DNA of 64,000 nucleotides. Origin: Mumia sp. Pv4-285. Lineage in GTDB: Bacteria > Actinomycetota > Actinomycetes > Propionibacteriales > Nocardioidaceae. The position numbers were made by a program, and so were the translations under genes. The notes under the pieces are model-generated. The model was not told the origin of the DNA and did not search any database. It saw only the letters and a program-made list of their open reading frames with translations. The stretch spans positions 3,162,001 through 3,226,000 of the forward strand of contig NZ_CP162023.1 in assembly GCF_041320275.1 (NCBI RefSeq), given 5' to 3'. Shown here piece after piece: positions 41,562-57,820 of the stretch (its first letter is position 1; each line of letters opens with the position of its first letter).

Positions 41562-42955
41562 TCGAACGCCTCCATCACGATCATCGTCTTCTGGCGGGTG
41601 AGGTCGGTGACGGTCTCGTGGAGGCCCTCGCGGTATCCACCGGTGTCCTTCGTCCCGCCGAACGGGAGGTTCTCGGCCCGCAGGGCGGTCGACCCGTTGA
41701 TCACGACCCCGCCGACGTCGAGCTGCTTGGCAAGCGTGAACGCGCGCGACACGTCGCGGGTGAACACGGCGGCGTGCAGGCCGTACGGGGACTCGTTAGC
41801 CATCCGTACGGCGTCGGCGACGTCGGTGAAGCGAGCGATCGGTGCGACCGGGCCGAAGATCTCGTCGGCGAAGGCCGGACTCTTCTCCGGCACGTCGGCG
41901 AGAACCGCCGGGGTCACGAAGGCCCCGTCGCGCTCCCCGCCGGCCAGCAAGGTGGCTCCGTCGCCGACGAGCCGATTGACCGCAGCCTCGACCGCCTGTG
42001 CGGCCGACTCGGCGATGAGTGGGCCCACGTCAGTGGCCCGGTCGAGCTGGTCACCGACGCGCAGCGCGGCCGCCTTCGGCAGCAGCAGATCCAGGAAAGC
42101 GTCATGGACGGCCTCATCGACGTACACGCGCTTCACCGCACAGCAGATCTGCCCGTTACCTCGCGCCAGCCGACCCAGCACCACGGCGTCGACCGCCTTC
42201 TCGAGGTCGGCGTCCTCGCACACGATCAGCGCGTCGTTGCCGCCGAGCTCGAGCAGGACCTTCTTGAAGGTGTCGGCGCCGCGACGGGCGAGCTCGCGGC
42301 CCGCGACCGTACTGCCGGTCAGCGTCACCGCGGCCACGCCCGGCAGCTCGGCGAGCATCTGAGACACCCGCACACCGCCGGTGACGAGCTGGTGCGCGTA
42401 CGGCGGTGCCCCGGCCTCCGCGAAGATCTCGTTCACCCGCACCAGCGACAGCGGGCAGCGCGACGGCGGTTGGACGACCACCGCGTTGCCGGCCGCGATC
42501 GCAGCGGCCGCCTTGTGCGCGTAGAGCTCGACCGGGTAGTTGAACGGTACGATCGCCGCGACCACGCCCAGCGGCTCGCGCACCGTGATGGCGAGATTGC
42601 GCTCGAGTCCGGGGACTGCGTCGAGCGGAATCTGCCGGCCGAAGATGCGGGTTGCCTCGGCGGCGTAACCGCGGAAGATTCGGATCGCGGCGTCGACCTC
42701 GCCCTCGGTCTGCGGAAGCGGCTTGCCGTTCTCTGCGGCGACGAGTGCGGCGATGCTGTCGCGCTCGGCAGCCATCCGGGTCGCGACCTCTTCGAGCAGC
42801 GCTGCCCGCGCGTGGGACGGCATCGCCGCGACCGCGCGCTGGCCGGTCTGGGCGTCGTCGACGACGCGGCGGACGTCATCCTCGGTCATGTCGGGGACCT
42901 GGCCGAGGAGCTCGCCGGTGCCAGGGTTGGTGACGTCGAACGTGCTGACGGTCAT
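41558..42955 (-). CDS. NAD(P)-dependent aldehyde dehydrogenase
   Basis: A 465-residue aldehyde dehydrogenase. It has PFNYP (137-141), LTGSTVAGRELA (cofactor), general base E236 in LELGGN and catalytic cysteine C271 or C272 in GNGQICCAVKR. The usual lysine of the VKPS cofactor motif is replaced by Q162 (VQPPS), which may weaken NADP use. In this operon it could oxidise a sugar-derived semialdehyde (for example 2,5-dioxopentanoate, lactaldehyde or glycolaldehyde); the sequence does not say which. The ATG at 42955 is chosen by family length. It lies 34 bases after the IclR gene. Confidence 0.9.
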   Translation of the reverse strand: MTVSTFDVTNPGTGELLGQVPDMTEDDVRRVVDDAQTGQRAVAAMPSHARAALLEEVATRMAAERDSIAALVAAENGKPLPQTEGEVDAAIRIFRGYAAEATRIFGRQIPLDAVPGLERNLAITVREPLGVVAAIVPFNYPVELYAHKAAAAIAAGNAVVVQPPSRCPLSLVRVNEIFAEAGAPPYAHQLVTGGVRVSQMLAELPGVAAVTLTGSTVAGRELARRGADTFKKVLLELGGNDALIVCEDADLEKAVDAVVLGRLARGNGQICCAVKRVYVDEAVHDAFLDLLLPKAAALRVGDQLDRATDVGPLIAESAAQAVEAAVNRLVGDGATLLAGGERDGAFVTPAVLADVPEKSPAFADEIFGPVAPIARFTDVADAVRMANESPYGLHAAVFTRDVSRAFTLAKQLDVGGVVINGSTALRAENLPFGGTKDTGGYREGLHETVTDLTRQKTMIVMEAFE

Positions 42956-42989
42956 CAGTCTTGCCTTTCGTGTGTGCGTGGAGTGGGTT

Positions 42990-43772
42990 TCATCCCGCGT
43001 TGCGTCGCGTCGCACCGGCGTAGCCGAGCGCGGCTCCGATCTCGTGCGCGATCCTGAGAGCGGTCGGAGCCAGGTCGTGGCAGGCATCAGCCGTGAACCG
43101 GCTCGCCGGGGCGGACACGCTGAACGCCGCCACCGGCTCGCCCGAGGCGTTCACGATCGGCAGGCCGATGCAGCGGACGCCGAGCTCGTTCTCCTCGTCG
43201 TCGAGGGCGTATCCCTGCTCGCGCACCCGCTCGAGCTCCGCTGCCAGGGAATCGCCGAACAGCGTCTTCGGGGTCGGTCGCGCGAGGTCGCCGGCGAGGC
43301 GGGCAGCCCGCTCGTCCGGTGGCATGAGTGACAGCAGGGCCTTGCCCATCGACGTGCAGTGCAGTGGGACCTCACTGCCGATGCGTGACACGAGCCGCAC
43401 GGACTGATCGCTCTCGACCTTGTCGACGTAGACGATGTGGTCGCCGATCGGAACGCCGAGGTGGGCCGTCTCGCCGCTGACACCTGCCAGCTCCACGAGG
43501 TACGGGTGGGCGACGCGGAGCAGGACGTCCTCCTCCAGGTACTGCCCGGCAAGGCGGACCAGCCCCACGCCGAGCCGGTAGACGCCGGCACCGTCGCGCT
43601 CGACGACGCCGAGGTCGAGGAGCGACGTGACGTAGCGGTGGGCCGTGCTGACGGCGACCTGCGCACGGGCGGCCAGATCCTGCAGCCCGACGCCGTCGGG
43701 ACCGCCGTCGGCGATGACCTGGATGAGCTCGAACGCCTTGGCGACGCTCGAAGATTTGCGCGTTGTAGTCAT
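42990..43772 (-). CDS. IclR-family regulator, first gene of the sugar operon
   Basis: A 260-residue IclR protein: an N-terminal winged helix (KAFELIQVIADGGPDGVGLQ, AVSTAHRYVTSLLDLGVVER) and a GAF-like effector domain (GETAHLGVPIGDHIVYVDKV, LHCTSMGKALLSLMPPDERA, DEENELGVRCIGLPI). It probably senses a pathway intermediate such as KDG or KDPG. The palindrome ATTCGA-N5-TCGAAT overlaps its start codon, indicating autoregulation of the whole leftward operon. ATG 43772 is chosen since the HTH follows at the normal distance. Confidence 0.93.
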   Translation of the reverse strand: MTTTRKSSSVAKAFELIQVIADGGPDGVGLQDLAARAQVAVSTAHRYVTSLLDLGVVERDGAGVYRLGVGLVRLAGQYLEEDVLLRVAHPYLVELAGVSGETAHLGVPIGDHIVYVDKVESDQSVRLVSRIGSEVPLHCTSMGKALLSLMPPDERAARLAGDLARPTPKTLFGDSLAAELERVREQGYALDDEENELGVRCIGLPIVNASGEPVAAFSVSAPASRFTADACHDLAPTALRIAHEIGAALGYAGATRRNAG

Positions 43773-43787
43773 TCGAATAACTCGAAT
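43771..43787. promoter_or_regulatory. Operator-like palindrome at the sugar operon start
   Basis: ATTCGA (43771-43776) and TCGAAT (43782-43787) form a perfect inverted repeat spaced by five bases, overlapping the IclR start codon. The same half-sites border the longer palindrome at 48726-48753. Confidence 0.6.
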
Positions 43788-43863
43788 CTGTTTCGATAAG
43801 TGCGAATGCGTGCGCTCACTGTGCTCTCGGTCACATGCCGGTGTCAAGTAGGTCACATGGCTG

Positions 43864-44628
43864 TCACCGACGGCCGAACCGCCGCCGCGCCTCGACGAGC
43901 TCGGTGACGGCGCGCTGCTCGAGCTCGGGCGTCAGGCGCAGGAGGGGTATCGACACGCTGATGGCGTGCGAACCCGCGTCGCCGACTGGGAGCGCTACGG
44001 CGAAGCACCAGATCCCGTCGGCGTTCTCGCCCCGGTCAACGGCGTATCCCCGTCCACGAGTCTCCGCGATCTCGTCCCGCAGACGGTCCGGCGAGGTGAT
44101 CGTGTTCTCGGTGAGCGCTCGAAGCGACCCGTCGGCGACTGCCTCGACGTCGGTCTCGCTGAGCTCGGCCAGCATCGCCTTCCCCAAGGCCGTGGCGTGA
44201 GCGGGAAGCCGACGGCCGATCGCGGAGAACATCCGCAGCGGGTGCGCGGACTCGCGCTTGGCGAGATAGAGCACGTCGTGGCCATCGAGGCATGCAAGGT
44301 GCACGGTCTCCCCGAGTCGTTCGAGCAAGGCGTCCAGGAGCGGTGCGGACTGCGCCACGACCCGGTCGCCACTCACGTATGCGCTGCCGACCGCGAGCGA
44401 GCGCGGGCCGATGGTGAAGCCGCCCTGCCCCTCCTGCAGCCAGCCCCGGGCCGCGAGGGTGCGCAAGATGCCGGCGAGCGTGCTCTTGGGGACTCCGAGC
44501 TCGCGGGACAGCTCGCTCAGCGTCGCCGGGCGCTCGCGTACGGCCAAGAACTCGAGGACCTCCATCGCCCGGTCGACCGCACGCACCCTCGCGAACGCAT
44601 CCCCGTCCCGACCATCAACCTCGGACAT
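43864..44628 (-). CDS. IclR-family regulator, divergent from the sugar kinase
   Basis: A 254-residue IclR protein: DRAMEVLEFLAVRERPATLS, ELGVPKSTLAGILRTLAARG (HTH) and the effector domain GETVHLACLDGHDVLYLAKR, ATALGKAMLAELSETDVEAV. It is less similar to the other two IclR proteins here. GAGGAGG five bases before ATG 44628 sets the start. It is divergent from the KDG-type kinase, with the GTTCAG-N4-CTGAAC palindrome between, so it probably represses that gene. Confidence 0.93.
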   Translation of the reverse strand: MSEVDGRDGDAFARVRAVDRAMEVLEFLAVRERPATLSELSRELGVPKSTLAGILRTLAARGWLQEGQGGFTIGPRSLAVGSAYVSGDRVVAQSAPLLDALLERLGETVHLACLDGHDVLYLAKRESAHPLRMFSAIGRRLPAHATALGKAMLAELSETDVEAVADGSLRALTENTITSPDRLRDEIAETRGRGYAVDRGENADGIWCFAVALPVGDAGSHAISVSIPLLRLTPELEQRAVTELVEARRRFGRR

Positions 44629-44650
44629 CACGACCTCCTCGGCGCCCGCC

Positions 44651-44681
44651 TTGACAAGCGGCGCGCACGTCGGGCTACATT
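44651..44681 (+). promoter_or_regulatory. Candidate promoter of the KDG-type kinase
   Basis: TTGACA (44651-44656) and TACATT (44676-44681) with a long 19-base spacer, about 57 bases upstream of the kinase GTG. The long spacer suggests a need for activation. The GTTCAG operator lies just downstream. Confidence 0.45.
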
Positions 44682-44702
44682 TCGTTCAGAATATAGCCCA
44701 CT

Positions 44703-44718
44703 GTTCAGCATCCTGAAC
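44703..44718. promoter_or_regulatory. Operator-like palindrome upstream of the sugar kinase
   Basis: GTTCAG-CATC-CTGAAC is a perfect inverted repeat (44703-44718), with another GTTCAG half-site at 44684-44689. It lies between the candidate promoter and the kinase start, a good repressor site for the divergent IclR protein. Confidence 0.7.
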
Positions 44719-44737
44719 ACAGTCTCGAGGGGAACCT

Positions 44738-45853
44738 GTGCCCACCGCCGCCACGCCGATCGAATTCCGACCCGCCGACGAGTGCGCCTACGACGCCGTC
44801 GCCCTCGGCGAGGTGATGCTCCGACTCGACCCCGGCGAGTCGCGGATCCGCACCGCCCGTACGTTCACAGCGTGGGAGGGAGGCGGCGAGTACAACGTCG
44901 TCCGCGGACTACGCCGCGTGTTCGGGCACCGCACGGCGGTGGTGACCGCCCTCGCCGACAACGAGGTCGGGCATCTGGTCGAGGGACTCGTCCTCGCCGG
45001 TGGCGTCGATGCCAGCAAGATCGTCTGGCGCCCGTACGACGGCGTCGGTCGATCCGTCCGCAACGGGCTCAACTTCACCGAGCGTGGCTTCGGCGTACGA
45101 GGAGCCCTCGGGGTATCCGACCGCGGACACACCGCCGCCGCAGCACTGAGGCCGGACGACGTCGACTGGGACCACCTCTTCGGAACCCTCGGCGTCCGCG
45201 TCCTGCACACCGGCGGAATCTTCGCGGGGCTTTCGGAGACGACTCCGGAGGTTGCCGAAGCGGCGATGAAGGCTGCCCGGCGTCACGGCACCGTCGTCTC
45301 GTACGACCTGAACTATCGCCCCAGCCTGTGGAAGGACGTGGGAGGACAGGAGCGGGCGCAGGAGGTCAATCGCGCACTCGCCCGTCACGTCGACATCATG
45401 ATCGGCAACGAGGAGGACTTCACGGCGAGCCTCGGCTTCGACGTACCTGGGGTCGACGCCTCTCTCTCCGCGCTGGAGACGAACGGGTTCCGGCAGATGA
45501 TCGAGCATGCAACGAAGGAGTTCTCGAACTTCGCGGTGGCCGCTACCACGCTGCGTACGGTCAGGACCGCCACCGTCAACGACTGGGGCGCGATCGCGTG
45601 GTCGCGCGACGTCGGCTTCGTCGAGGCGACCCACCGCGAGCGACTCGAGATTCTCGATCGCGTAGGTGGTGGCGACTCGTTCGCGTCAGGCTTGATTCAC
45701 GGTCTCTTGACCGGCAGCGACCTGAAGCGGGCGGTCGAGCTGGGAGCTGCGCACGGGGCTCTTGCTATGACGACACCGGGCGACACCTCAATGGCGAACA
45801 TCGCCGAGGTAGAGCGGTTCGCCGACGGCGGCAACGCCCGCGTCGTGCGTTAG
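44738..45853 (+). CDS. kdgK: PfkB-family sugar kinase, probably 2-keto-3-deoxygluconate kinase
   Basis: A 371-residue ribokinase-fold kinase. ALGEVMLRLDPGE with AWEGGGEYNVVRGLRRVFGH forms the N-terminal sugar-binding part; YDLNYRPSLW and NEEDF are typical of KDG kinases; DRVGGGDSFASGLIHGLL is the PfkB signature with the catalytic Asp. It should phosphorylate KDG to KDPG using ATP, feeding the aldolase at 37321. The GTG at 44738 has GAGGGG six bases upstream. It is slightly longer than typical KDG kinases. Substrate is inferred from motif and neighbours. Confidence 0.85.
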   Translation: MPTAATPIEFRPADECAYDAVALGEVMLRLDPGESRIRTARTFTAWEGGGEYNVVRGLRRVFGHRTAVVTALADNEVGHLVEGLVLAGGVDASKIVWRPYDGVGRSVRNGLNFTERGFGVRGALGVSDRGHTAAAALRPDDVDWDHLFGTLGVRVLHTGGIFAGLSETTPEVAEAAMKAARRHGTVVSYDLNYRPSLWKDVGGQERAQEVNRALARHVDIMIGNEEDFTASLGFDVPGVDASLSALETNGFRQMIEHATKEFSNFAVAATTLRTVRTATVNDWGAIAWSRDVGFVEATHRERLEILDRVGGGDSFASGLIHGLLTGSDLKRAVELGAAHGALAMTTPGDTSMANIAEVERFADGGNARVVR

Positions 45854-45872
45854 GCAGCAAGCTCGGGAACCC

Positions 45873-46661
45873 TCACGTGGCGTTCTGGCCGCGGTGGCCC
45901 AACGCCTGTTCGATGAGTCGGACGGCATCGAGGACCAGCGGCGCGATCTCCTCACGCCGCTCCGTGGTCATCCGGACTGACGGCCCCGAGACACTGATCG
46001 CTGCGACCGGCCGCAACCTGCTGTCGAGGATCGCCGCGCCTACGCAGCAGACCCCGAGTTCGTTCTCCTCCTCGTCCATCGAGATCCCGGACGCACGGAT
46101 CGCCGCCAGATCGGCCAGCAGCTCGTCACGCTCGGTAAGCGTGTGCACCGTCTGGGCCGGTCTCGGCTGAGAGAGCGCGGCGTCGAGCTCGTCCGGCGGC
46201 AGCTGCGCAAGAACGGCCTTTCCCATCGACGTACAGTGCATCGCCACTTGATGGCCGATAGCGGAGACGAGCCGCACGGAGTGCGAGCTCTCGACCTTCT
46301 CGATGTAGACGATCCGTCCGCCCGTCGGCACTCCGAGGTGGACGGTCTCGCCGGTCGAGGCGCCCAGATCTCGCAGGACCGGCGTGGCAGCCGAGCGGAG
46401 GTTGTCCTCATCGAGCAGCTCGGTCGCGAGCGTAAGGAGACGGACGCCGAGGTGAAGGCGACCCCCGTCGTCTCGGCGGAGGACACCGAGGTGCAAGAGC
46501 GTCGTCACGTACCGATGGATCGTGCTCCGCGCCTTGCTCGCTCCGCCGGCGAGCTTTGCGAGGGTGATGCCCTCGGCGCCGGCGGCGGCGACCTGGTCGA
46601 GGATCGCGAACGCGTGCACCACGCTGGTGGAGACACCGCGTGCGTTCGGTTCGTTCTCCAT
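45873..46661 (-). CDS. IclR-family regulator
   Basis: A 262-residue IclR protein, a paralogue of that at 42990: SVVHAFAILDQVAAAGAEGI, ARSTIHRYVTTLLHLGVLRR and GETVHLGVPTGGRIVYIEKV, MHCTSMGKAVLAQLPPDELD, EEENELGVCCVGAAI. The ATG at 46661 is preferred over an earlier ATG eleven codons upstream. It converges with the kinase gene and lies after the secreted protein gene at 46759, from which a hairpin separates it. It may control that gene through the ATTCGA palindrome. Confidence 0.92.
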   Translation of the reverse strand: MENEPNARGVSTSVVHAFAILDQVAAAGAEGITLAKLAGGASKARSTIHRYVTTLLHLGVLRRDDGGRLHLGVRLLTLATELLDEDNLRSAATPVLRDLGASTGETVHLGVPTGGRIVYIEKVESSHSVRLVSAIGHQVAMHCTSMGKAVLAQLPPDELDAALSQPRPAQTVHTLTERDELLADLAAIRASGISMDEEENELGVCCVGAAILDSRLRPVAAISVSGPSVRMTTERREEIAPLVLDAVRLIEQALGHRGQNAT

Positions 46662-46702
46662 GACTCGCACAGTACTGGGATCGGCGACCCACAATACGCC
46701 TA

Positions 46703-46731
46703 GCGCCCGCCCGGAAGTTCCGGACGGGCGC
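46703..46731. terminator. Hairpin terminator of the 637-residue secreted protein gene
   Basis: GCGCCCG (46703-46709) with CCGGAA pairs with TTCCGG and CGGGCGC (46725-46731), with one internal mismatch, forming a long GC-rich stem. It lies about 30 bases after the stop at 46759 (leftward) and before the IclR start. Confidence 0.65.
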
Positions 46732-46758
46732 CCCAGGTGATGGTCAGGCGGTCACCGT

Positions 46759-48672
46759 TCAGCTCCCCTTCGGAACCATGAGAGTGATCGAGTCGATGGT
46801 GGCGCTCCCCTCCCCTGCATCGGTGTAGGGATCACCGATGACCGGGAAGTCGGGGTAGCTCGACCCGGCCGGCCACTGGTCGGCCCACTGCTGCTGGCCG
46901 AACACCCCGTTCTGCACCAACGTCCGGTTGAAGCGGCCGTCGTACTGGTCAGGCGTGTTGTTGTAGTGCCAGATGGGCGTTGCCCCACCGATGAACGGCG
47001 AGTAGAACCGCAGCGTCATGTGGCCGGCGTGCAGGAAGTCACCGGTGACCTCCATCGTGTAGCCGGTCTTGCTGCGCTCCACCGCGAACAAGTAGTCAGA
47101 GTTCGGCATGAACTCCGGCTTCATCTCGGCCGCCGCGTACGGCGAGATCGGAACCGGAAGCCCTCGCGTGCACGTGGTCGAGAACCACTGCGAGTTGCCC
47201 GTGATCCCACCCTTGCCTGGCGTGAAGTTCGGCAGGCCGTTGAACCACATGTCGATCACGTTGTAGGTGCTGTCACGGTAGTCGTACGAGGTGTTGTCGG
47301 CGGGGTTGCAGACCCGACCACCGCTGCCCGACCCGATCCGGTCCGGGTGCTGGGCGAAGGAATCCATGAGGATCTTGCGGCGATAGTGCCAGAAGTGCAG
47401 GTTCGCCGGCTTGGGCTTCTCGAAGTCGACGATCCCGAGCAGGTGGAAGGCGTTGTAGCCGAACGGGCCGTCGACCACACTCTGCCAGGCGCAGGGATCG
47501 GGGTTGGTGGGATCGTTTCCCCATCCGGGCGTGCCGATGCCTTCCGCGTACGGGAACTGGGTCTTGCACTGCGCGTCCTCGGGCGAGTAGCCGTTCTCCT
47601 TGCCGTCGTAGAAGATGCTGCCGTTGCGCTGGCCGCCGAAGTCGAGCGTCTTGAGGCGGTACTCGAGCCGGTACTCCGAAGGGAGCTTCTCGCTCGTGGT
47701 GACGAACGCACCGTCGTAGGAGTCCGGCGAGTCGATCCTGAGCGCCTTCTCGCTCGTGGGCAGCTTCGTCGTCGAGATCCTCGGCGGGTTCTGGGGTGAG
47801 CCGGAGTTGTTCCAGTCCCGCGCGGACAGCGTCGCGGTCAACCAGTCGCCCTTGCCGAACTTGACCTCCTTGCGGTAGGTCGTGAAGCTCTTGAGCACGT
47901 CCGGCTCCCAGGTCGGCCCATAGTCGTTCTTCCACCAGTCGCCCGCGTCGTCCATGATCGTGTCGACCTGCTCGTCGTAGTCGTGGCGGACCCACTCGCT
48001 CTCGTCGGTGTCGACCGCGCGGCTCTGCGCCTGGAAGTTCTCCGAGTGCAGCACCTTCCACCTCGTCGACGGCGCTGCCTCACCGGCCGCGCACGGCAGC
48101 GTCACGCCGTCGTCGTTCTCGATGATCGTCAGCGAGATGCTGTGGATCGACGCGCCACCGGACCCAGCGGACAGCCGGAAGTCGGCGCCTCCGTTCTCGC
48201 GGTTGGCGAAGCGCCCGTCGACGATGTTGAAGGCCGCCGTCTGCCACGTCTTGGTGTCGGCACGCATCACCGTGCCGGCCGCGGCGTAGGCGCTGGCCTG
48301 CGAGTCGTACTGCAGGCTCAAGCCTTCCTTGCCTTCGTCGTAGTACTCGGCGCGCACGCACGCGACGTACGTGCTGTCGAAGGCGACCGAGTCGTCGATC
48401 TTGACGTACATGTAGTGGGCGCCGGTCCCGACCGTCTTGCGGGCGCTCTGCCCGCCGATCGTCACCGGCGATGTCTGCCCATCTCCTTCCTCGATCTGGA
48501 CGAGCCCGCGTGGCTCGTTGGTCTCACCCAGCACGATCGATGCGTCTGGCTCCTCCACAACCGCCTGCGTCGGCTCACTCGCGACCCCTGACGGGGCGAC
48601 GAGAGTGCCGACGCACAAGGCTGCCGTGGCCGCCAAGGCCGCAAGAGTCGCGCTCTTGTGCCGAGTCCTCAT
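46759..48672 (-). CDS. Secreted protein of unknown family, probably polysaccharide-related
   Basis: A 637-residue exported protein. The signal peptide (HKSATLAALAATAALCVGTL, cleavage near GVASE) is followed by a beta-rich module (about 50-200, ending TIIENDDGVTLPC). A large Trp/Tyr-rich domain follows (about 215-637: TWEPDVLKSFTTYRKEV, GQRNGSIFYDGKENGYSP, NLHFWHYRRKILMDSF, EVTGDFLHAGHMTLRFYSPF) that looks like a concanavalin-type glycan-active fold. I cannot name a GH or PL family. AAGGAG nine bases before ATG 48672 sets the start; 66 codons of open frame upstream are not coding. An 11-base palindrome lies in its promoter. It likely acts on the polymer used by the neighbouring operon. Confidence 0.78.
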   Translation of the reverse strand: MRTRHKSATLAALAATAALCVGTLVAPSGVASEPTQAVVEEPDASIVLGETNEPRGLVQIEEGDGQTSPVTIGGQSARKTVGTGAHYMYVKIDDSVAFDSTYVACVRAEYYDEGKEGLSLQYDSQASAYAAAGTVMRADTKTWQTAAFNIVDGRFANRENGGADFRLSAGSGGASIHSISLTIIENDDGVTLPCAAGEAAPSTRWKVLHSENFQAQSRAVDTDESEWVRHDYDEQVDTIMDDAGDWWKNDYGPTWEPDVLKSFTTYRKEVKFGKGDWLTATLSARDWNNSGSPQNPPRISTTKLPTSEKALRIDSPDSYDGAFVTTSEKLPSEYRLEYRLKTLDFGGQRNGSIFYDGKENGYSPEDAQCKTQFPYAEGIGTPGWGNDPTNPDPCAWQSVVDGPFGYNAFHLLGIVDFEKPKPANLHFWHYRRKILMDSFAQHPDRIGSGSGGRVCNPADNTSYDYRDSTYNVIDMWFNGLPNFTPGKGGITGNSQWFSTTCTRGLPVPISPYAAAEMKPEFMPNSDYLFAVERSKTGYTMEVTGDFLHAGHMTLRFYSPFIGGATPIWHYNNTPDQYDGRFNRTLVQNGVFGQQQWADQWPAGSSYPDFPVIGDPYTDAGEGSATIDSITLMVPKGS

Positions 48673-49119: not shown

Positions 49120-49147
49120 CTTCTCACTGGGTTCGGGGTTCGAGTCC
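49120..49147. repeat. Third copy of the tRNA-Lys 3' segment (att-like scar)
   Basis: 28 bases are identical to 34213-34240 (attR with four bases of its left flank), covering the tRNA anticodon-stem 3' strand, variable loop and T loop. Beyond them the sequence diverges (TTGGTAGGGCACAAAACAAG compared with CTGATGGCGCACAAACAAG). It is not a full tRNA. Confidence 0.75.
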
Positions 49148-49476
49148 TTGGTAGGGCACAAAACAAGAGGGCGACAGCGCCGCTTCCGGACGTGAGATCG
49201 GGCCGGAGGCTGACGTCCGGCCTTCGCCACCCTGGGCCACCTCGAGCATCCGAACGTGCCCGCCGCGGGGTTCGTCCGTCCTCACGCCCAGGGGCATCAG
49301 ACCGGAACGAGCGGCACAGCCGGGAGATTCGGCAGCAGAACAGCAAGCTCAGGTTCTACCCCGAACGATCTGTCCCGCATGAACCCCGACCACCGGACCT
49401 ACCCGACGGTCTGGATCACGACGCGAGCTCGCTGACTCAACAAGGTCGTCGTTCGGACAACCGGGCAAGTAGTGCG
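49148..49476. other. Scar zone downstream of the peptide operon
   Basis: About 330 bases without a convincing gene, between the att-like scar and the stop of the GntR gene. Frames here are Arg/Ser-rich on both strands. The whole stretch 48754-49476 holds only the hydratase fragment and the att-like scar. Confidence 0.45.
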
Positions 49477-50175
49477 TCACCCCTCTCGCCGTGTCTCGCC
49501 CTTCTCGCGCAGGTAGTGGCGGTACAGCTCGGCCGCAATCTCACCGCGATCTGCGCCACGGACGATCTCTGCGAACTGTCGGTGTCGCTTTACAGCCTCA
49601 CCCAGATCGATGTGCTGATCCTCCATCGACGAGCGCATCAGCGCACCCATCTGTGCGTCCAATGTTGACCACAAGCTCGCGAGCCGCTCCTTGTGCGCCT
49701 CGCGAACGATGCACCCGTGGAACTCCGTGTCGAGGTCGACGATCGCCGCCAGGTCGCCGCTCTCGGCAGAGTCGGCCATCTTGTCGACGACCCTGTCCAG
49801 CGCATCGGCGAGCTCCGACAGCCGGTGGTCGTCGATGGCGCGCATCGCGCCCTCCTCGAGGACATACCGTGCGTAGCACGCGTCCTGGACCTCTTCGTAC
49901 GACATGCGTCGCACCGTGCTGTACCGCCTGGGTGCGATGTCGACCAGGCCCTCCTGCGCGAGCTGGCGCAGCGCCGTCCGCAGCGTCGAACGGCTGACCC
50001 CCAGCTCCTCGGCGAGGTTGACCTCGACCAGCCGCGTCCCGGCGGGAAGCTCGTTGTTGAGGATGCGACGGCGCAGCACCTGGTGCACCGACTCCGGGAG
50101 GGACAGGTGTCGCACTGCAGTGTCGGGAATGCCGCCGAGCGAGGACGAAATGTTGGCTTCAGTCACGGTTCTCAC
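49477..50175 (-). CDS. GntR-family regulator (FCD type)
   Basis: A 232-residue GntR/FadR-type repressor: winged helix (VHQVLRRRILNNELPAGTRL, LAEELGVSRSTLRTALRQLA) and an FCD effector domain (YARYVLEEGAMRAIDDHRLS, DTEFHGCIVREAHKERLASL, VKRHRQFAEIV) whose Asp/His residues bind a metal. It is the last gene of the long leftward operon and overlaps the DUF4438 gene, an arrangement suggesting feedback control by an operon metabolite. The GTG start at 50175 is uncertain; GTG at 50166 is possible. Confidence 0.92.
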   Translation of the reverse strand: MRTVTEANISSSLGGIPDTAVRHLSLPESVHQVLRRRILNNELPAGTRLVEVNLAEELGVSRSTLRTALRQLAQEGLVDIAPRRYSTVRRMSYEEVQDACYARYVLEEGAMRAIDDHRLSELADALDRVVDKMADSAESGDLAAIVDLDTEFHGCIVREAHKERLASLWSTLDAQMGALMRSSMEDQHIDLGEAVKRHRQFAEIVRGADRGEIAAELYRHYLREKGETRREG

Positions 50176-51031
50176 ATGCTATGCGTTCGAGGGTCGCCCC
50201 GCGGTGGTCTCGAGGGTCGATGGTAGGGGCAAACGAATCCGTTCGTGCACACACGACGGGCATGAGTCCGGGCCCGTGTCCAGGGAGCGGACTCGCGCCG
50301 TGGACGATCACGCCGAGGGTGCTCCAGCCCTGCCGGTAGCCGATGTTGTGCCGGACGTCGAGGTCCGAGACCAGAACGAGGTCACCGAGACAGAGGTCCG
50401 CAAGTCCCCAGCCTCCTGCGGTCTCGCGGGTCACGCTGAGATCGACGTCCCACTGCTGTGCAGGGCGCCCGAGCCCGTTCCCGACGAGCTTGGACGGAAC
50501 CACCGCTCGTACTGAGGTCGAGATGACGCTGCCGATCGTCACGCCGAGGGCTGCGAGGGCACCCGGGGCGATGTTCAGGACGGCCGCGCCCTCTGCCGCG
50601 AGCTCGGCAGGCAGGCTCAGGCCCTGTCCGATGCCACGGATCATCAGCGCGTCGCCGGGAACGAGCAGGGCGAGGGCCTGCTGCTCGAACACCGCAATCA
50701 CGCGACCCGCCTCACCGCGCTTGCCCAGCACGCGTCCGGTCTCGCCCGCGGCGGCACCCGACCGGACCACGACCTCGTTGCCCAGGCAGGCGAAACTTGT
50801 GAGCGCGTGCCGGGCGGCCGGGTCTGGATGGATCACGGTCACACCCGGCGCGGCATGGTCACCGTCGTGGTCGAAGACTCGATGGCCGAGCTCGAGGCCG
50901 GTGACGACGCCGCCGTCTCCGACGGGGACGTACGGACGACCGTCGACATCGATGCCAAAGGGGCTCGAGCCGAACTGGGGTGTCTCGACGATTCCCGCGA
51001 GGTTGACGGCAACAGGCTTGAGCGTGGTCAT
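50159..51031 (-). CDS. DUF4438 protein, paralogue B
   Basis: A 290-residue DUF4438 protein: PGVTVIHPDPAARHALTSFA, LGNEVVVRSGAAAGETGRVL and the C-terminal WGLADLCLGDLVLVSDLDVR, ending in GHGPGLMPVV. DUF4438 has no assigned reaction. The fold is beta-rich, and conserved Asp/His residues suggest a metal or ligand site. It overlaps paralogue A by four bases and the GntR gene by 17, so both copies are produced together. Confidence 0.88.
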   Translation of the reverse strand: MTTLKPVAVNLAGIVETPQFGSSPFGIDVDGRPYVPVGDGGVVTGLELGHRVFDHDGDHAAPGVTVIHPDPAARHALTSFACLGNEVVVRSGAAAGETGRVLGKRGEAGRVIAVFEQQALALLVPGDALMIRGIGQGLSLPAELAAEGAAVLNIAPGALAALGVTIGSVISTSVRAVVPSKLVGNGLGRPAQQWDVDLSVTRETAGGWGLADLCLGDLVLVSDLDVRHNIGYRQGWSTLGVIVHGASPLPGHGPGLMPVVCARTDSFAPTIDPRDHRGATLERIACENRD

Positions 51032-51903
51032 GACGATGCCTCCATGGCAGCGAAGTAGGTCCTCAGGTTCGCCGTTTCGTCCTCGACGATCTCGAAAGCC
51101 GCCGCCGGTCCGGAGAGGATCGAGGACGGACCCGGGCCATGTCCGAACAGGTGGCAGTGGCCGGTGCTGATCACGCCCACCGTGAGGTAGCCCTCGCGGA
51201 AGCCGCGTCCGAAGCGGTGGTCCTGGTCCTCGAGCACGACGAGGTCGCCGATACGCAAGGTCTCGAGTCCCAGGCTGAGATCCGGGCTGAGCCCGGGGTA
51301 CGCGCCCATGAGGTCGGTGTTCGCGAACTCCGACACCATCCCGGCTCCGGCTCCGACCGCTGAAGCAGGAACCCGGGCCGCGACGCCGACCCGGAGCCGC
51401 CCGTCGCCGGCGGTGTCGAACGGCATGACGGTGGCGAGCGTCGGATCAAGGTTCTTCACGATCACGTCGGGATGGTCGTCGAAGGCGAGCCCTTGCCCGC
51501 GAGCGGTCACCACGACACGGTCGCCGGTCGAGACGTCGTTCATCGCCTCGTCCGCCATGTCGACGAGGACGTACGCGTGCTGCCCGATGACGCGGCCACG
51601 CGCGCCCGCGGAAGGACCACTCTGAACGACCACCTCGTTGCCGACGCAGCTGAGGAACTGCAACGCCATGTTGGCTGCGGGGTCGGCGTGCCTGACCGAC
51701 AGGCCGGGCTCGAGGTGGTCCGCCGCGTAGCCGGTGGCGGGATCACCGACGTGGACGCCGAGGGTCACACCGCCCATGCCGGGCAGCAGGAACGGGTCGC
51801 CGTCTGCATCGACCCGGTAGGCGTGGCGGTCGGCGAGCGGAGGCCACACCTCGCCGACCAACCGCTGCGTGATGATCCGGTCGGCGTTGGTCGCGATGCT
51901 CAC
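51028..51903 (-). CDS. DUF4438 protein, paralogue A
   Basis: A 291-residue DUF4438 protein clearly related to the next gene: PGLSVRHADPAANMALQFLS, VGNEVVVQSGPSAGARGRVI, TLRIGDLVVLEDQDHRFGRG, HLFGHGPGPSSIL. The GTG at 51903 has GGAGG seven bases upstream and overlaps the TldE stop by four bases. Tandem DUF4438 genes may form a heteromer. The link to a TldD/TldE pair and a peptide importer suggests a role in peptide or amide breakdown; this is inference. Confidence 0.88.
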   Translation of the reverse strand: MSIATNADRIITQRLVGEVWPPLADRHAYRVDADGDPFLLPGMGGVTLGVHVGDPATGYAADHLEPGLSVRHADPAANMALQFLSCVGNEVVVQSGPSAGARGRVIGQHAYVLVDMADEAMNDVSTGDRVVVTARGQGLAFDDHPDVIVKNLDPTLATVMPFDTAGDGRLRVGVAARVPASAVGAGAGMVSEFANTDLMGAYPGLSPDLSLGLETLRIGDLVVLEDQDHRFGRGFREGYLTVGVISTGHCHLFGHGPGPSSILSGPAAAFEIVEDETANLRTYFAAMEASS

Positions 51904-53294
51904 TTCCCTGCCTCCAATGGCCGGCTGCCGAAGCGGAAGCCGTGTCCGCGGAGGGCGGGCGCGGACGCGCTGCCGTTCCACACGTTCATCACCGGCTGCG
52001 ACCTGACCGTGTCTCCGACACCGTCGACGGTGGCGAGGAAGCCGAGGACCGACTGGGTGAAGCGGCCGGTCGCCAGCGGCTGGGTCAGGCGACCGTTCTC
52101 GATGAGGAAGCAGCCGTCGCGGCTCACCCCGGTGATCGTCGACGCCGACCTGTCCACCAGCCGCGTGTACCAGAACCGCTCGACGTAGATGCCGCGATCG
52201 ACACCCGCAATCAGATCCGCCTCGGTCGCCGTCCCCGGCTCCATCACGACATTCGCGGCGACCGGGTGCGGCACCTCCTCGCGAGCGATGTGGGCATGGC
52301 CGGTGGACGGCGTGCCGAGCGCGGCCGCTGTCGCCAGGTCGGTGACTGGCTCTCCGACGACACCCCGCTCGAAGAAGGGCACCCGTCGCTTGGCCGTCCC
52401 TTCGAAGTCGAACGGGATCGGGAGCCCGTACGACGACAGCGCGTCGTCGGCGACCGAGACGGTCGGGGCAACCAGACGGTCGCCGTGGTTCTGGGCGCAC
52501 ACGCCGACCCCGGCAGCGGCCAGGTCGCCGGAGAAGCCGAAGGCCTCGAGAAACCCGAGGAGCTCCCCTGCCGCCTCGGGGCCGAGCACGACGGTGAACT
52601 CGCCGTCCGGGACCGCGATCCGGCCTCGACCGCGTACCGCCCGGTCGAGGGTCGCGTCGATCGCGCCCTCGGCGCCGAGTGCGTCCGCCGACCGGTGGAG
52701 GTCGATCCAATGAGCCGTCCCGTCGTCGACGGCGACGGTGAGCGAGCCGGACGCCTCAGTTGCGCTCGCCTCGACCGAGACCCCCGCGCTGTTCGCGACG
52801 GCGATCTGCGTCAGCGCCCGCCCGATCATCCCGTACGCCTGACCGGAGCGTGCCCGGGCGCCGTCCATCGCTCGGCGTACCAGCGCGACGCGTCGACCGG
52901 CATCGAAGGCGACGGTGTCGTCGTGCCGGAGCCGCAGCTCGGGGATCTGCGCGGGCTCGGCGACGACGACCGATCCCGGCCGGTTAGCCGCGCCGGCGAG
53001 CTCCCGCGCCAGACCGGCCGCACGCTGCGCGGTCTCGGCAACGCTGCGCAGGTCGGACGTCGACGCGCGGGCCGCGTGGCCGTCGACGACCGCCTTCACC
53101 ATCGCCGTCACCTCGGTGATGTCCTGCGGCTGATGGATGCGGTCCCCGGCGAACCGGGTGTACTCCCCCGTACGACCGAGCACCGTCACCTCGACGGCAT
53201 CGGCGGCAGAGCCGCGGACCGCAGCGTCCGCGATCTCGAGCGCACGGTCGGCGGTCAAGGGACTTGCGAAGCCCTGCTGAAGGACGGTCATCAT
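51900..53294 (-). CDS. TldE/PmbA-type protease subunit
   Basis: A 464-residue TldD/PmbA family protein lacking the HExxxH motif, so it corresponds to the non-metal TldE subunit. Features: VVGEPVTDLATAAALGTPST, HPVAANVVMEPGTATEADLI, GVDRGIYVERFWYTRLVDRS, ISTG-like loop TITGVSRDGCFLIENGRLTQ. TldD/TldE heterodimers cleave unfolded peptides inside a closed chamber. The start is ATG 53294 (or 53291), overlapping the TldD stop by four bases. GC-rich codon use equals its neighbours. Confidence 0.92.
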   Translation of the reverse strand: MMTVLQQGFASPLTADRALEIADAAVRGSAADAVEVTVLGRTGEYTRFAGDRIHQPQDITEVTAMVKAVVDGHAARASTSDLRSVAETAQRAAGLARELAGAANRPGSVVVAEPAQIPELRLRHDDTVAFDAGRRVALVRRAMDGARARSGQAYGMIGRALTQIAVANSAGVSVEASATEASGSLTVAVDDGTAHWIDLHRSADALGAEGAIDATLDRAVRGRGRIAVPDGEFTVVLGPEAAGELLGFLEAFGFSGDLAAAGVGVCAQNHGDRLVAPTVSVADDALSSYGLPIPFDFEGTAKRRVPFFERGVVGEPVTDLATAAALGTPSTGHAHIAREEVPHPVAANVVMEPGTATEADLIAGVDRGIYVERFWYTRLVDRSASTITGVSRDGCFLIENGRLTQPLATGRFTQSVLGFLATVDGVGDTVRSQPVMNVWNGSASAPALRGHGFRFGSRPLEAGK

Positions 53295-54775
53295 GCGACT
53301 CCGATCCGGAGGTCTCGAACCAGGACAGGGGCAGCGGCGTGGCTGAGGAAGCCCCACTGCTTGGGCTCCCCCTTCCCGCACGGGTAGCCGAAGATCCGAA
53401 GCTCCTCCGGTCCGGCCACGGCCTCGACCGAGCCCCAGAACTGCGGTGTGGTCCCGCCGTACGAGAAGTTCTTGAGGAGCCTGCCCCGCTTGCCGTTGCG
53501 CACCTCGTACGCGACCTCCGTCCCGAACTGGAAGTTCCAGCGGCGGTTGTCGATCGACCAGCTGCGGTTGTCGTCCGCGTACACGCCGTCGCCGAGACGG
53601 TCGAGGAGCTCGTCGAGCGACCCCGAGCCGGGCTCGAGGTAGACGTGTGTGGCGAAGCAGACCGGGAGGTACCCCCAGCCGTCGGCGCGTGCGGCACCGG
53701 TCAGCTCCTGCCCGCTGCGCGCGGCCGCGTCGCGATTGGACAGCGTGGCCCGGACGATCCCCTCGTCAACGAGCCGGGTGCGCCGCGCCGGCGTGCCCTC
53801 GTCGTCGAACGCAAAGCTCCCCCGAGTCCCGGGAATGGTCGGATCCGACGTGATCGTCACCGCCGGCGAGCCGTAGCGCAGCGAGCCGATGTCGTCCACA
53901 CCGATGAACGACGTGCCGGCATAGTTCGCCTCGTCGCCGAGGATCCGGTCCAGCTCGAGCGCGTGCCCGGACGACTCGTGGATCTGCAGCGAGACCTGCT
54001 GGGGACCGAGCACCACGTCGGCACGACCCGCCGGCGCGACTGGCGCTGTGAGCAGCGCGACCGCCTCCTCCCCGACCCGTACGGCCTGCGCAGCGAGGTC
54101 CAACGTCGCGACGTACTCCCAGCCGGCGCCAGCGGTGTTGCCGTGGAAGGAGTTGGGATAGCTCCGGCGCTGGACGTCGCCGTGCCCGGAGGCCGTCGCG
54201 ATCACACCGCCGCCGGTCTCCACGAAGTGCTGGTGCTGGCGCGAGCCCTCGCTGTTGCCGAGATGGCGGTGCTGTCGCTTTGCGTTCAGCCCGGCTTGAG
54301 CCGCAACCACTGACGAGGAGCGGCTCACGTTGGCCAGGACCTCGTCGAGAAGGCACTGCCGCACATCTGCCCCGACCGTGAACGGGTCGATCTCGACCGC
54401 CGACTCGTACCGACCGCTGGCCGGCGACATGGGCTCGAGCTTCACCGGGGCCGTGACGCCTGCGGACGCTCGCGCACTTGCGAGCGCCTGGCGCGCTGCG
54501 ACCTCTGCGTCCTCGCGGTCCATCAACGGACGCGAGGCGAAGCCCCAGGCACCGTCGACGAGAACGCGTACACCGATGCCGCGCGAGTGCTCGAGGCGCT
54601 CGTCGGGGTCGGCACCGACCTGGGTGTAGAGCCTCATCTCCTCGGCCTCGATGAGTCGGACGTCGGCGTACTCGCTGTGTCCGTCCGCGACGGCGAGAGC
54701 CGACTCGACGATCCGATCGGCGACGGCGTCGTCGGCGAGCTCGCCCCAGACGTGCGCGCTCGGGTCACTCGGCAC
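53291..54775 (-). CDS. tldD: TldD-type metalloprotease subunit
   Basis: A 494-residue TldD family protein with the zinc-binding HESSGH (H266-E267...H271), followed by LELDRILGDEANYAGTSFIG and the typical C-terminal TldD segments (YEVRNGKRGRLLKNFSYGGT, FWGSVEAVAGPEELRIFGYP). It is the catalytic partner of the TldE protein in the next gene. The GTG at 54775 has GAGGAGG six bases upstream and lies inside the end of the Gfo/Idh/MocA gene. It is slightly longer than E. coli TldD. Confidence 0.93.
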   Translation of the reverse strand: MPSDPSAHVWGELADDAVADRIVESALAVADGHSEYADVRLIEAEEMRLYTQVGADPDERLEHSRGIGVRVLVDGAWGFASRPLMDREDAEVAARQALASARASAGVTAPVKLEPMSPASGRYESAVEIDPFTVGADVRQCLLDEVLANVSRSSSVVAAQAGLNAKRQHRHLGNSEGSRQHQHFVETGGGVIATASGHGDVQRRSYPNSFHGNTAGAGWEYVATLDLAAQAVRVGEEAVALLTAPVAPAGRADVVLGPQQVSLQIHESSGHALELDRILGDEANYAGTSFIGVDDIGSLRYGSPAVTITSDPTIPGTRGSFAFDDEGTPARRTRLVDEGIVRATLSNRDAAARSGQELTGAARADGWGYLPVCFATHVYLEPGSGSLDELLDRLGDGVYADDNRSWSIDNRRWNFQFGTEVAYEVRNGKRGRLLKNFSYGGTTPQFWGSVEAVAGPEELRIFGYPCGKGEPKQWGFLSHAAAPVLVRDLRIGVA

Positions 54776-55913
54776 GGGCTGCCTCCTCGTTCGCGGCCAG
54801 CGGGAACGACACCCACGCGCGCTGGCGGAACGATGCTTCGAACGCGTTGACCGTCTCCTGCACGAGCGCGCCCTGGGCGAAACCACCCTGGTTCTGAGGG
54901 CCGCCGTCGAGGATCTCGGTCGCGAAGTCCGCGCAGAGGTTCGAGTAGAAGAGGAAGTCCCAGTCCTCGCGCGAGTTGCCGCCCTCGGGGAAGAACTCGG
55001 CCGGGATCTCGCGCTCCACGAACTCGACCTCGTCCTTCGTCGCCGTCTTGATCGTCTGGCAGATGCCGAACTCCTCGACGAGACGGATGATGATCGCGCC
55101 CTGCGAGCCGAAGATCCGCGCCTCGATGCCGGGGAAGTTGCCGACGGTCACGTACGACGACTGGATCGACGCCATCACGTTGTTGTCGAACTCGCAGATC
55201 CACATGTCGCCGTCGTCGATGTTCAACCGCTGCATCTGGCCGGTCGCGCGAACCATGCGCTCCGGGACGAAGTTCCGCATCGTGCCGACCACCGACTTCA
55301 GCTCGGCGCCGACCCACTCGTGCATGATGTCGATGATCGGAGCGCCGTACCCCTCGATCGAGGAAGTCGCGATCACGTCCGGGTCGGCATCCGGGTCGAC
55401 CTGCCGCATCGGGGTCTGGGGGTCGATCCACTGGCTGTTCTGCTCGTAGCCGTTGAAGATGTAGGGCGTCCCGACGAACCCCTGCTCGATGAGGTGGCGC
55501 GCGTACTGGACCGCGGGCGCGTAGCGGAAGGTGAATCCGAGCTTCGTCTTGAGGCCGGTCGACTTCGCCAGGTCCGCGAGGCGCTGTGTCTCACGGTAGT
55601 CGTGGTGGACCGGCTTCTCGCACAGGACGTGCTTGCCGGACTTCAGCGCCGCCTCGGAGATCTCGAAGTGCGCGGTGTTCGCGGTCGCGACGTCCACGAC
55701 GTCGATGTCGGAGCGCTCGAGCATCTCGCGGTAGTCGCTGTAGAGGTCGCTCACCCCGAACGTCGCGCCGGCCTCGGCGAGCACGGCTTCGTCGCTGTCG
55801 ACGAGGGCGACGACCTCCACGCGCGGGTCGCGCTGCCAGCCCGGGATGTGGGCCCGCTGGGCCCAGCGACCCGTGCCGACGACCGCGACACGAAGCTTCT
55901 TGGTGGTGGTCAT
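54765..55913 (-). CDS. Gfo/Idh/MocA-family dehydrogenase
   Basis: A 382-residue oxidoreductase: Rossmann motif VAVVGTGRWAQRAHIPGWQ, the conserved CEKPV, then GFTFRYAPAVQYARHLIEQG and a C-terminal beta-sheet domain. Family members oxidise or reduce sugar-like or inositol-like ring hydroxyls with NAD(P). Its place in a peptide-type importer operon suggests the substrate may be an amino sugar, or a peptide bearing a sugar. It is 19 bases downstream of the permease gene. Confidence 0.92.
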   Translation of the reverse strand: MTTTKKLRVAVVGTGRWAQRAHIPGWQRDPRVEVVALVDSDEAVLAEAGATFGVSDLYSDYREMLERSDIDVVDVATANTAHFEISEAALKSGKHVLCEKPVHHDYRETQRLADLAKSTGLKTKLGFTFRYAPAVQYARHLIEQGFVGTPYIFNGYEQNSQWIDPQTPMRQVDPDADPDVIATSSIEGYGAPIIDIMHEWVGAELKSVVGTMRNFVPERMVRATGQMQRLNIDDGDMWICEFDNNVMASIQSSYVTVGNFPGIEARIFGSQGAIIIRLVEEFGICQTIKTATKDEVEFVEREIPAEFFPEGGNSREDWDFLFYSNLCADFATEILDGGPQNQGGFAQGALVQETVNAFEASFRQRAWVSFPLAANEEAARAE

Positions 55914-55932
55914 GATTTTCCTTTCGTAGGGA

Positions 55933-56859
55933 CTAGCGACGAATCCGCGGGTCGATCGCCGCGTAGGCGAGGTCGACCAGGAGGTTCATCACGACGATGA
56001 AGAGCGCGGCGACGAGCACGGCGCCGGTGATCATCGGGATGTCGAGCGTCCCGATGGCGTCGAAGGTGAGCTTCCCGACCCCGGGCAGCCCGAAGACGGA
56101 CTCGATGACGACCACTCCGCCGAGGAAGTAGCCGAAGTCCATGCCGAGCATGGTGACCAGCGGCGCGACGACGTTGCGGAGCGCGTGGCCGAGCACGACC
56201 CGCCGCTCGGGCATGCCCTTCGCCCGAGCCATCTGCACGTACGGGCCGCGCAGCGCCTCGATCATGTTGGTGCGGGTGAGCCGCGCGTACCAGGCGGCTC
56301 CACCGATGCCCAGGGTGAAGCCGGGAAGGATGAGGTAGTTGATGTACGGCGGCTCCCACCCGGTCAGCGGGAACACGTTCAGCTGGTACGCGAAGACGTA
56401 CAGGAGGATCAGTCCCAGCCAGAACGGCGGCGCCGACAGTCCGAGAAGGGTGCCGAACGTCGTCAACCGGTCGAGGAGACCCTTGGGCCGGTACGCCGCG
56501 ATGATCCCGACGGGCACACCGATCAGGACCTCGAACAGAACCCCCGCGACGGCGACCGCGATGCTGACCGGGAGCGCGTGGAGGATCGCGTCGGCGACCG
56601 ACTGGCCCGCGAGCGCGTAGCTCTGTCCGAGATCCCCGTGCAGCAGCCCTTGGACGTAGAGCAGGTATTGCTGGAAGAGGCTCTCGTCGAGTCCCAGCTC
56701 GTGGTGGATCGACGCGACCGTCTCCGCGCTGGCGTTCGGACCTGCGATGAGTCGAGCCGGATCTCCCGGCACGACGTGCGTGAGGATGAACGTGAGGGTG
56801 ACGACCCCGAACAGGACGACGACGGTCTGCGGGATCCGCCGTACGAAGAATCGGCCCAT
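55933..56859 (-). CDS. Oligopeptide-type ABC permease (DppB type)
   Basis: A 308-residue permease with six membrane helices. The N-terminal FFVRRIPQTVVVLFGVVTLT and FILTHVVPGDPARLIAG are typical of DppB/OppB. The EAA loop is about AKGMPERRVVLGHALRNVVA. It pairs with the DppC-type permease encoded one base upstream to form the channel. Confidence 0.94.
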   Translation of the reverse strand: MGRFFVRRIPQTVVVLFGVVTLTFILTHVVPGDPARLIAGPNASAETVASIHHELGLDESLFQQYLLYVQGLLHGDLGQSYALAGQSVADAILHALPVSIAVAVAGVLFEVLIGVPVGIIAAYRPKGLLDRLTTFGTLLGLSAPPFWLGLILLYVFAYQLNVFPLTGWEPPYINYLILPGFTLGIGGAAWYARLTRTNMIEALRGPYVQMARAKGMPERRVVLGHALRNVVAPLVTMLGMDFGYFLGGVVVIESVFGLPGVGKLTFDAIGTLDIPMITGAVLVAALFIVVMNLLVDLAYAAIDPRIRR

Positions 56860-56860
56860 G

Positions 56861-57820
56861 TCAGCGGCGCTCCTCTGCGGTGGGGTCCAGCAGGTCGCGC
56901 AGCCAGTCCCCGGCGAGGTTGAACGCGAGCACGGTCAGCACCAGGCACAGACCGGGGAAGACGAGGAGCCACGGTGCGATCTGGTAGTACTCCCGTCCTT
57001 GATCGACCATCTGGCCCCACGACGGGTTCGGGATCGGCACCCCGACGCCGAGGAAGGACAGCGACGCCTCGATGAGGATCGACGACGCAACGCCCAACGT
57101 CGCGTACACGATGATCGTGGGCACCAGGTGCGGGAAGAGGTGCTTGCGCATGATCCGCCAGTGACCGAGTCCGAGCGTGCGTGCGGCCACGACGAACTCG
57201 CGCTCCTTCAGCGACATCACGAGACTGCGCACGATCCGAGCGAGGGTCGTCCAGTAGATGAGGGCGACGACAATGATCACGTTCTTCTCGCTCGGTCCGG
57301 TGACAGCGATCAAGGCGATGCAGAGCAGGAGGATCGGGAAGGACATGACGATGTCGGTGATCCGCATGAGGACGGTCTCGACCCAGCCTCCGAGGTAGCC
57401 GGCGCAGGTCCCGACGATCACCCCCAGCACCGTTGCGAGGCCGTTGGCCAGGATCCCGATGGTCAGCGAGACCCGCGCCCCGTAGAGCAGGCGCGAGAGC
57501 ACGTCACGCCCGCTCGGGTCGGTCCCGAGCGGGAAGGACCCGCCCGGTGGAAGCGGCGCACCGTCGGCCGACAGACCGTTGGGGAAGGTCTGGAGCGGGT
57601 CGTGCGGCGCGAGCAGCGGAGCGAAGAGGGCGGCCAGGGCCAGGATGACGAGCAACGCGAGCGAGATCATCGCTGGCAGGTCGTGACGCAGGCTCGCGAG
57701 TACGCGCCGGCGGACGGTGACGGCCGGCAGCGCTGTGTCGGCTCCGTCGGCGACGAGAGTCGCGTCGAGGTCGGCAAGGCTGGGCGCGGCGGTGGCGGCG
57801 TAGTCCGACGAAGGATTCAT
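56861..57820 (-). CDS. Oligopeptide-type ABC permease (DppC type)
   Basis: A 319-residue permease: a cytoplasmic N-terminus of about 50 residues, MISLALLVILALAALFAPLL, the conserved PLGTDPSGRDVLSRLLYGAR, and the EAA loop ARTLGLGHWRIMRKHLFPHL. ATG 57820 is chosen; it overlaps the upstream ATPase gene by four bases. It is one half of the importer channel. Confidence 0.94.
   Translation of the reverse strand: MNPSSDYAATAAPSLADLDATLVADGADTALPAVTVRRRVLASLRHDLPAMISLALLVILALAALFAPLLAPHDPLQTFPNGLSADGAPLPPGGSFPLGTDPSGRDVLSRLLYGARVSLTIGILANGLATVLGVIVGTCAGYLGGWVETVLMRITDIVMSFPILLLCIALIAVTGPSEKNVIIVVALIYWTTLARIVRSLVMSLKEREFVVAARTLGLGHWRIMRKHLFPHLVPTIIVYATLGVASSILIEASLSFLGVGVPIPNPSWGQMVDQGREYYQIAPWLLVFPGLCLVLTVLAFNLAGDWLRDLLDPTAEERR

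What the first reader, a model, noticed from the sequence alone, without database searches (positions are those of the whole stretch)
49120..49147. Third tRNA-Lys 3' segment far downstream: sign of tandem island accretion
28 bases identical to attR plus its left flank recur 15 kb further on, then diverge. The match includes bases outside the tRNA consensus, so it is not just the universal T loop. The sugar region (34.3-49.1 kb) may be a second, older insertion at the same site, followed by a scar with a hydratase fragment.
Basis: partly seen in the sequence, partly recalled or inferred. Interest (0 to 1): 0.55.

Follow-up and report, generated by a model that had tools for sequence, protein, structure and literature searches.

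The report
Stacked genomic islands at tRNA-Lys
A short copy of a tRNA gene's tail, found 42 kb from the gene itself, is best read as the scar of an older DNA insertion, so this stretch of a bacterial chromosome looks like several mobile islands stacked at one tRNA gene, an arrangement already known from other bacteria.

Summary
In detail: 49120-49147 equals 34213-34240, and similarity continues, decayed, to 49167. The 21-base core occurs three times in the 4.65-Mb genome, all here. Tandem accretion is the best explanation. (1) The sugar genes were not at the tRNA-Lys locus of any of five genus relatives; two marker proteins are found only in one of them (G004), at two other loci. (2) In four of five relatives a shared right flank lies 4.6-21.7 kb from the same tRNA, behind differing DNA. 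(3) The flank right of the 34.2-kb core is of element type, not the flank shared by relatives, so an older element lay to its right. (4) The same integrase family sits beside tRNA-Lys elsewhere; one relative has three cores, another an integrase remnant behind an inner core. Refinements: the first island is itself composite (core-less scar at 18.38 kb); 49.1 kb is not the outer border, since 49.2-71.3 kb is also absent from the relatives' fetched loci. Not confirmed: the hydratase fragment. Against: no integrase remnant and no recognisable attachment arm for the sugar unit. Known kind: CIME-like decayed island in a tandem array.

The parts
6912..6985 (+). tRNA-Lys(CTT), the target gene; its 3' half is the left attachment core
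   Evidence: ARAGORN
6950..7033 (+). left attachment site: tRNA 3' end plus type-A terminator-like flank, 84-bp direct repeat of 34217-34299 (98.8 %)
7008..8228 (-). tyrosine integrase, 406 aa, converging on the tRNA
   Evidence: Pfam Phage_integrase E 1.8e-16; PHROG integrase 3e-53; homologues near tRNA-Lys in 13 of 15 non-own loci
8238..8438 (-). excisionase-like small HTH protein
   Evidence: PHROG excisionase 6.2e-12; TIGR01764, just at its cut-off; HTH_17
18247..18460 (+). core-less scar inside the first island: left arm 18247-18380 (76 % to 34075-34207) joined to 18383-18460 (77 % to the flank right of tRNA-Lys in G004); the tRNA core between them is missing
34075..34216 (+). left arm of the second attachment site; 34078-34267 (arm plus core) is 80 % identical to G001 C7:80196-80385
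34217..34299 (+). second attachment core plus element-type (type-A) flank: inner junction
34569..48636 (.). sugar-acid catabolic cluster (DUF5107 protein, KDPG aldolase, sugar-binding protein, permease, ATPase, aldehyde dehydrogenase, three IclR regulators, PfkB kinase, 625-aa protein without family): cargo of the proposed older unit
   Evidence: Pfam/NCBIfam; 34588-45844 collinear in G004 elsewhere; related clusters in Planotetraspora and Conexibacter
49120..49167 (+). third attachment scar: CTTC, 24 perfect core bases (49124-49147), then decayed acceptor end and CACAAAACAAG
49168..64000 (.). further DNA right of the third scar not seen at the relatives' loci (GntR, DUF4438, TldD-like, dipeptide ABC genes); continues to about 71342 in window coordinates, where chromosome shared with G001 and G002 resumes

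Best explanation
The 49.12-kb segment is a decayed attachment scar left by site-specific integration at the 3' end of tRNA-Lys(CTT). Elements of one integrase family entered this tRNA one after another. Each newcomer recombined with the core in the tRNA, restored the tRNA 3' end with its own copy, and pushed the residents to the right, so the newest unit (7.0-18.4 kb, with integrase and excisionase) is next to the tRNA and older ones follow: 18.4-34.2 kb (Lamassu defence genes), 34.3-49.1 kb (sugar catabolism), perhaps 49.2-71.3 kb. The sugar unit is now a remnant without integrase, similar to a cis-mobilizable element; it could move only if the neighbour's integrase recombined outer sites. 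Shown: repeats, arms, flank types, absence from relatives' fetched loci, integrase next to tRNA. Inferred: order of events, former integrase of the sugar unit, mobility.
For: Core found only 3 times in the genome, all here and on the same strand. The type-A flank right of the 34.2-kb core matches the flank of the tRNA in own, G001 and G002 (98, 97, 93 %), where integrase sequence follows, not the flank that relatives share. That shared flank plus a sensor gene is kept in 4 of 5 genus relatives at 21.7, 7.8, 4.6 and 13 kb from the tRNA core, and is absent from own and G004 apart from weak paralogue matches. Right of 49.147 kb the sequence is nearer to the element flank (p 0.02 against shuffles, not corrected for six comparisons) than to five other flanks (p 0.40-0.96). 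The scar lies between two unrelated gene clusters; the sugar cluster is collinear in G004 elsewhere, while the TldD-like marker of the next stretch has no match in any of 5 genus relatives at E 1e-60. Of 11 non-own integrase-bearing genomes whose downstream DNA was fetched, 9 have a second core and one of these (G013) a third; G035 has an integrase C-terminal remnant (41 aa, 71 %, E 6e-15) behind its inner core, and G002 keeps only the last 64 residues of an integrase beside its tRNA.
Against: No integrase remnant in 18.4-34.2, 34.2-49.2 or 49.2-71.4 kb with 15 integrases at E 0.01. The DNA left of the 49.12-kb core shows no similarity to six arms above shuffles (p 0.17-0.75; of five controls between known arms, four passed and G005 failed). 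The four core differences are bunched (span of 8 or less: p 0.016; all in the last nine: p 0.002, a test chosen after seeing the data), which simple uniform decay does not predict. The shared right flank is lost in own, so the outer border cannot be defined. In G005 both ends of the island carry the same flank, so flank type is not an infallible marker of an inner junction.
Confidence: 0.75

Rival explanations
1. The composite 34.3-71.3 kb (or the whole array) arrived in one step from a donor whose tRNA-Lys already carried stacked islands, so the scar records accretion in another genome, not here.
For: Neither the DUF5107 nor the TldD-like marker is found at E 1e-60 in G001, the relative most similar in the flanking DNA; the core-less scar at 18.38 kb carries a flank of G004 type rather than the own/G001 type.
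Against: The core at 49.12 kb has the TCACT stem version that among the six genus genomes is found in the tRNA genes of own and G001 only, which points to this lineage or a near donor.
Confidence: 0.12
2. The 49.12-kb segment is an attachment remnant moved there by rearrangement (deletion or homologous recombination between cores), so the sugar genes were never an integrated unit of their own.
For: DNA was lost right of the array in own: the flank and two-component genes that four relatives keep are gone. The scar has an intact left part and a decayed right part, and no arm or integrase of a sugar unit is seen.
Against: The scar lies between two unrelated clusters, in the same orientation as the other cores, with CTTC as in the 34.2-kb and G001 scars.
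Confidence: 0.1
3. Chance or conserved tRNA T-loop similarity.
For: The T-loop motif is common to tRNA genes (recalled; weak matches to other tRNA-like places appear).
Against: No other place in the genome matches the 21-mer within 2 mismatches; the match covers the anticodon-stem side and CTTC outside the tRNA.
Confidence: 0.01

Closest known systems
CIME (cis-mobilizable element) in tandem accretion, e.g. Streptococcus salivarius, and tRNA-Lys(CTT) of S. agalactiae (PMC7563491, PMC5704250; passages seen)
   Same: Unit between direct attachment sites without recombination or transfer genes; stacked at one target gene; most decayed units farthest from the target gene; tRNA-Lys CTT is a known tandem site.
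   Different: No conjugative or mobilizable ancestor is recognisable here; cis-mobilisation untested; one border lacks its arm.
Tandem ssrA genomic islands of Dehalococcoides (PMC3146451; passages seen)
   Same: Several direct repeats of a small RNA gene 3' end, catabolic cargo, 15 islands without integration module.
   Different: Serine recombinase and tmRNA gene there; tyrosine integrase and tRNA-Lys here.
Tandem actinomycete integrative conjugative elements at tRNA-Lys in Frankia (PMC3218068; passages seen)
   Same: Tandem insertion at tRNA-Lys in Actinobacteria.
   Different: Those were selected for Int, Tra and Rep; no Tra or Rep family appeared among the proteins scanned here.

Membership tests
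CIME (34.3-49.1 kb) | flanked by attachment sites in direct repeat | tested here: met
   cores at 34217 and 49124, same strand; right site partly decayed and without recognisable arm
CIME (34.3-49.1 kb) | lacks integrase and transfer genes | tested here: met
   Pfam on its 11 main called ORFs; tblastn with 15 integrases, none at E 0.01
CIME (34.3-49.1 kb) | derived from a conjugative or mobilizable element by deletion | tested here: inconclusive
   element-type flank kept at 34255-34299, but no conjugation relic seen
CIME (34.3-49.1 kb) | mobilised in cis by a neighbour | not testable with these tools
   needs excision or transfer assays
mobile genomic island with its own integrase (7.0-34.2 kb) | own integrase, but no transfer or phage signature genes | tested here: met
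   integrase and excisionase; no relaxase, Rep, Tra or capsid family in the 25 of 29 called ORFs scanned with Pfam, two more with PHROGs only, two (9299-9700, 19606-19842) with neither; a holin-type membrane protein at 23742-24188 is the one phage-named Pfam hit above its cut-off besides the integrase domains

The most novel reading that the evidence does not exclude
Loss of the tRNA-derived core at old junctions is not mere decay but a recurrent way of locking islands in place: own 18.38 kb and G003 C1:2854.68 kb both keep the arm joined directly to the flank with the core cut out. Each island would then be domesticated by core loss after the next one lands.
Probability: 0.08. Interest if true: 0.45.

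Novelty: new member of a known kind. Interest (0 to 1): 0.3.

Why it matters
It mainly adds one well-resolved case to a known mode of genome growth.

Tried and rejected
Chance T-loop match: rejected. Hydratase fragment near 49 kb: no Pfam hit at E 1 and no NCBIfam hit at 0.001 for 48840-49022. A hidden integrase in the sugar unit: none. An arm left of 49.12 kb: none above shuffles. The 28-mer in viral contigs: 0 exact matches. The species could not be named: the named-genome scan may leave out the own genome and very near ones and gave only one Planotetraspora and two Conexibacter loci. A tRNA other than Lys as source of the decayed right half (acceptor GTAGGGC) was considered; no other place in the genome shares the core, but other acceptor sequences were not searched.

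Counts: of 15 non-own integrase loci at E 1e-60, 11 genomes had downstream DNA fetched (G001, G095, G107, G035, G280, G268, G013, G028, G096, G161, G294); 4 (G012, G074, G102, G282) were not. Of the two without a second core, G294 had under 4 kb downstream and G161 under 30 kb before the contig end. Marginal integrase-like hits not used as evidence: 14 aa behind an inner core of G013 (E 0.002) and 28 aa in G003 (E 0.008).

Full report
Observation. The 28 bases at 49120-49147 are an exact copy of 34213-34240; the tRNA-Lys(CTT) gene at 6912-6985 carries the same core. The 37-base tRNA 3' segment matches 33 of 37 at 49124-49160, and BLAST extends the match to 49167. A search of the 4.65-Mb genome with the central 21-mer and up to 2 mismatches gives three places, all in this window, with none in the reversed control. 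It is therefore not a general T-loop match.

Anatomy. An integrase (7008-8228) and an excisionase-like protein (8238-8438) lie next to the tRNA. The tRNA core and the 34.2-kb core share 84 bp including a terminator-like flank. Left of the 34.2-kb core is an arm of about 140 bp; arm plus core are 80 % identical over 191 positions to the right-hand scar of G001, and the arm occurs again at 18247-18380 inside the first island (76 %). At 18.38 kb this arm is joined directly to 18383-18460, which matches the flank right of tRNA-Lys in G004 (77 %); the core is missing. So the first island looks like two units. G003 has a similar core-less junction at its right-hand border.

Relatives. Six genomes of the genus are held, own included. 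In the stretches fetched all six differ in what follows tRNA-Lys, except that own and G001 share the integrase and excisionase and G002 an integrase end. A shared right flank with a sensor gene is found in G001, G002, G003 and G005 at 21.7, 7.8, 4.6 and about 13 kb from the tRNA core, and is missing from own and G004, which show only weak matches to paralogues elsewhere. Chromosome shared with G001 and G002 resumes in own at about 71.34 kb in window coordinates; for G003-G005 this was not seen in the stretches fetched. So, against these two, nearly the whole stretch from 8.4 to 71.3 kb is variable, not only 34.3-49.1 kb.

Sugar unit. It holds a KDPG aldolase, a sugar ABC transporter, an aldehyde dehydrogenase, a PfkB kinase and IclR regulators. 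Its 900-aa DUF5107 protein is found in 2 of 294 sampled family genomes at E 1e-60, own and G004; its 625-aa protein in 2 of 6 genus genomes, own and G004. The other genes of the cluster were compared only within fetched loci, not searched genome-wide. In G004 the genes are split over two places away from tRNA-Lys: 34588-45844 collinear at 71-73 % DNA identity in C1:2.46-2.48 Mb, and 45889-48782 at 83 % in C1:0.226 Mb; no tRNA was found in those stretches. Conexibacter and Planotetraspora carry related clusters. The stretch to the right of the scar is unrelated; its TldD-like marker has no match in the five genus relatives at E 1e-60, although 153 of 294 family genomes, own included, have one (best non-own 46 % identity).

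Why tandem accretion. In a single insertion the flank right of the right-hand core is chromosomal. In G001 it is: CACCATCC plus the terminator shared with other relatives. In own the flank right of the 34.2-kb core is instead the one that in own, G001 and G002 lies between tRNA and integrase sequence, so the island seems to have landed in the left end of an older element. The bases right of the 49.12-kb core again resemble that flank (p 0.02 against shuffles, uncorrected) and not the five others (p 0.40-0.96). One caution: in G005 both borders carry the same flank. Elsewhere in the family the same integrase type lies near tRNA-Lys in 13 of 15 non-own loci (12 CTT, one TTT; one of the rest has tRNA-Arg, one no tRNA). 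Of 11 with downstream DNA fetched, 9 have a second core, and G013 has a third; G035 keeps an integrase end behind its inner core.

Evidence against. No integrase remnant in any stretch right of the first unit in own, and no arm left of the 49.12-kb core; the arm test missed one of five known pairs, so it is not decisive. The four core differences are bunched, so the scar may be a mosaic of a fresh left and an old right part. These leave room for a rearranged relic.

Comparison with what is known. Passages of PMC7563491 define CIMEs as decayed elements that keep attachment sites and report that the most decayed units always lie farthest from the target gene; that is the order seen here. It also cites CIMEs, alone or in accretion, at tRNA-Lys CTT in S. 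agalactiae. PMC3146451 (passages) describes tandem islands with catabolic cargo at ssrA in Dehalococcoides, 15 of them without integration module. PMC3218068 (passages) reports tandem elements at tRNA-Lys in Frankia. Among the papers listed (4 of 4, 1 of 1, 12 of 26) I saw none on this locus by title or abstract start. The finding is a new member of a known kind.

Noticed in passing
27283-32365: Lamassu defence genes LmuC, LmuB and LmuA, in this order, on the second unit; an AAA ATPase at 25540-26961 with IetA as its best PADLOC match precedes them.
   Followed up: partly
15536-16237 and 19407-19872: FitA-like antitoxin with a weak PIN-domain partner in the first unit, and an 83 % DNA duplicate (antitoxin-like ORFs 91 % identical) on the other side of the 18.38-kb scar.
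   Followed up: partly
22217-22417; its copy lies at 67818-68018 in window coordinates, beyond the window: A 201-bp stretch at 91 % identity: the 3' end of an amidohydrolase gene of the right-hand stretch is repeated inside the Lamassu unit.
   Followed up: no
6912-6985: The anticodon stem is AGTGA/TCACT in own and G001 but GCTGA/TCAGC in G002-G005; the core-borne 3' strand changes together with the 5' strand, as if the tRNA was adjusted to the inserted half. Own, G001 and G004 also lack the encoded CCA.
   Followed up: partly
2162-6805: Left of the tRNA own and G001 carry a hydrolase and a helicase; in G005 both, and in G004 the hydrolase, lie about 100 kb or more from tRNA-Lys, so the left side is rearranged too.
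   Followed up: no
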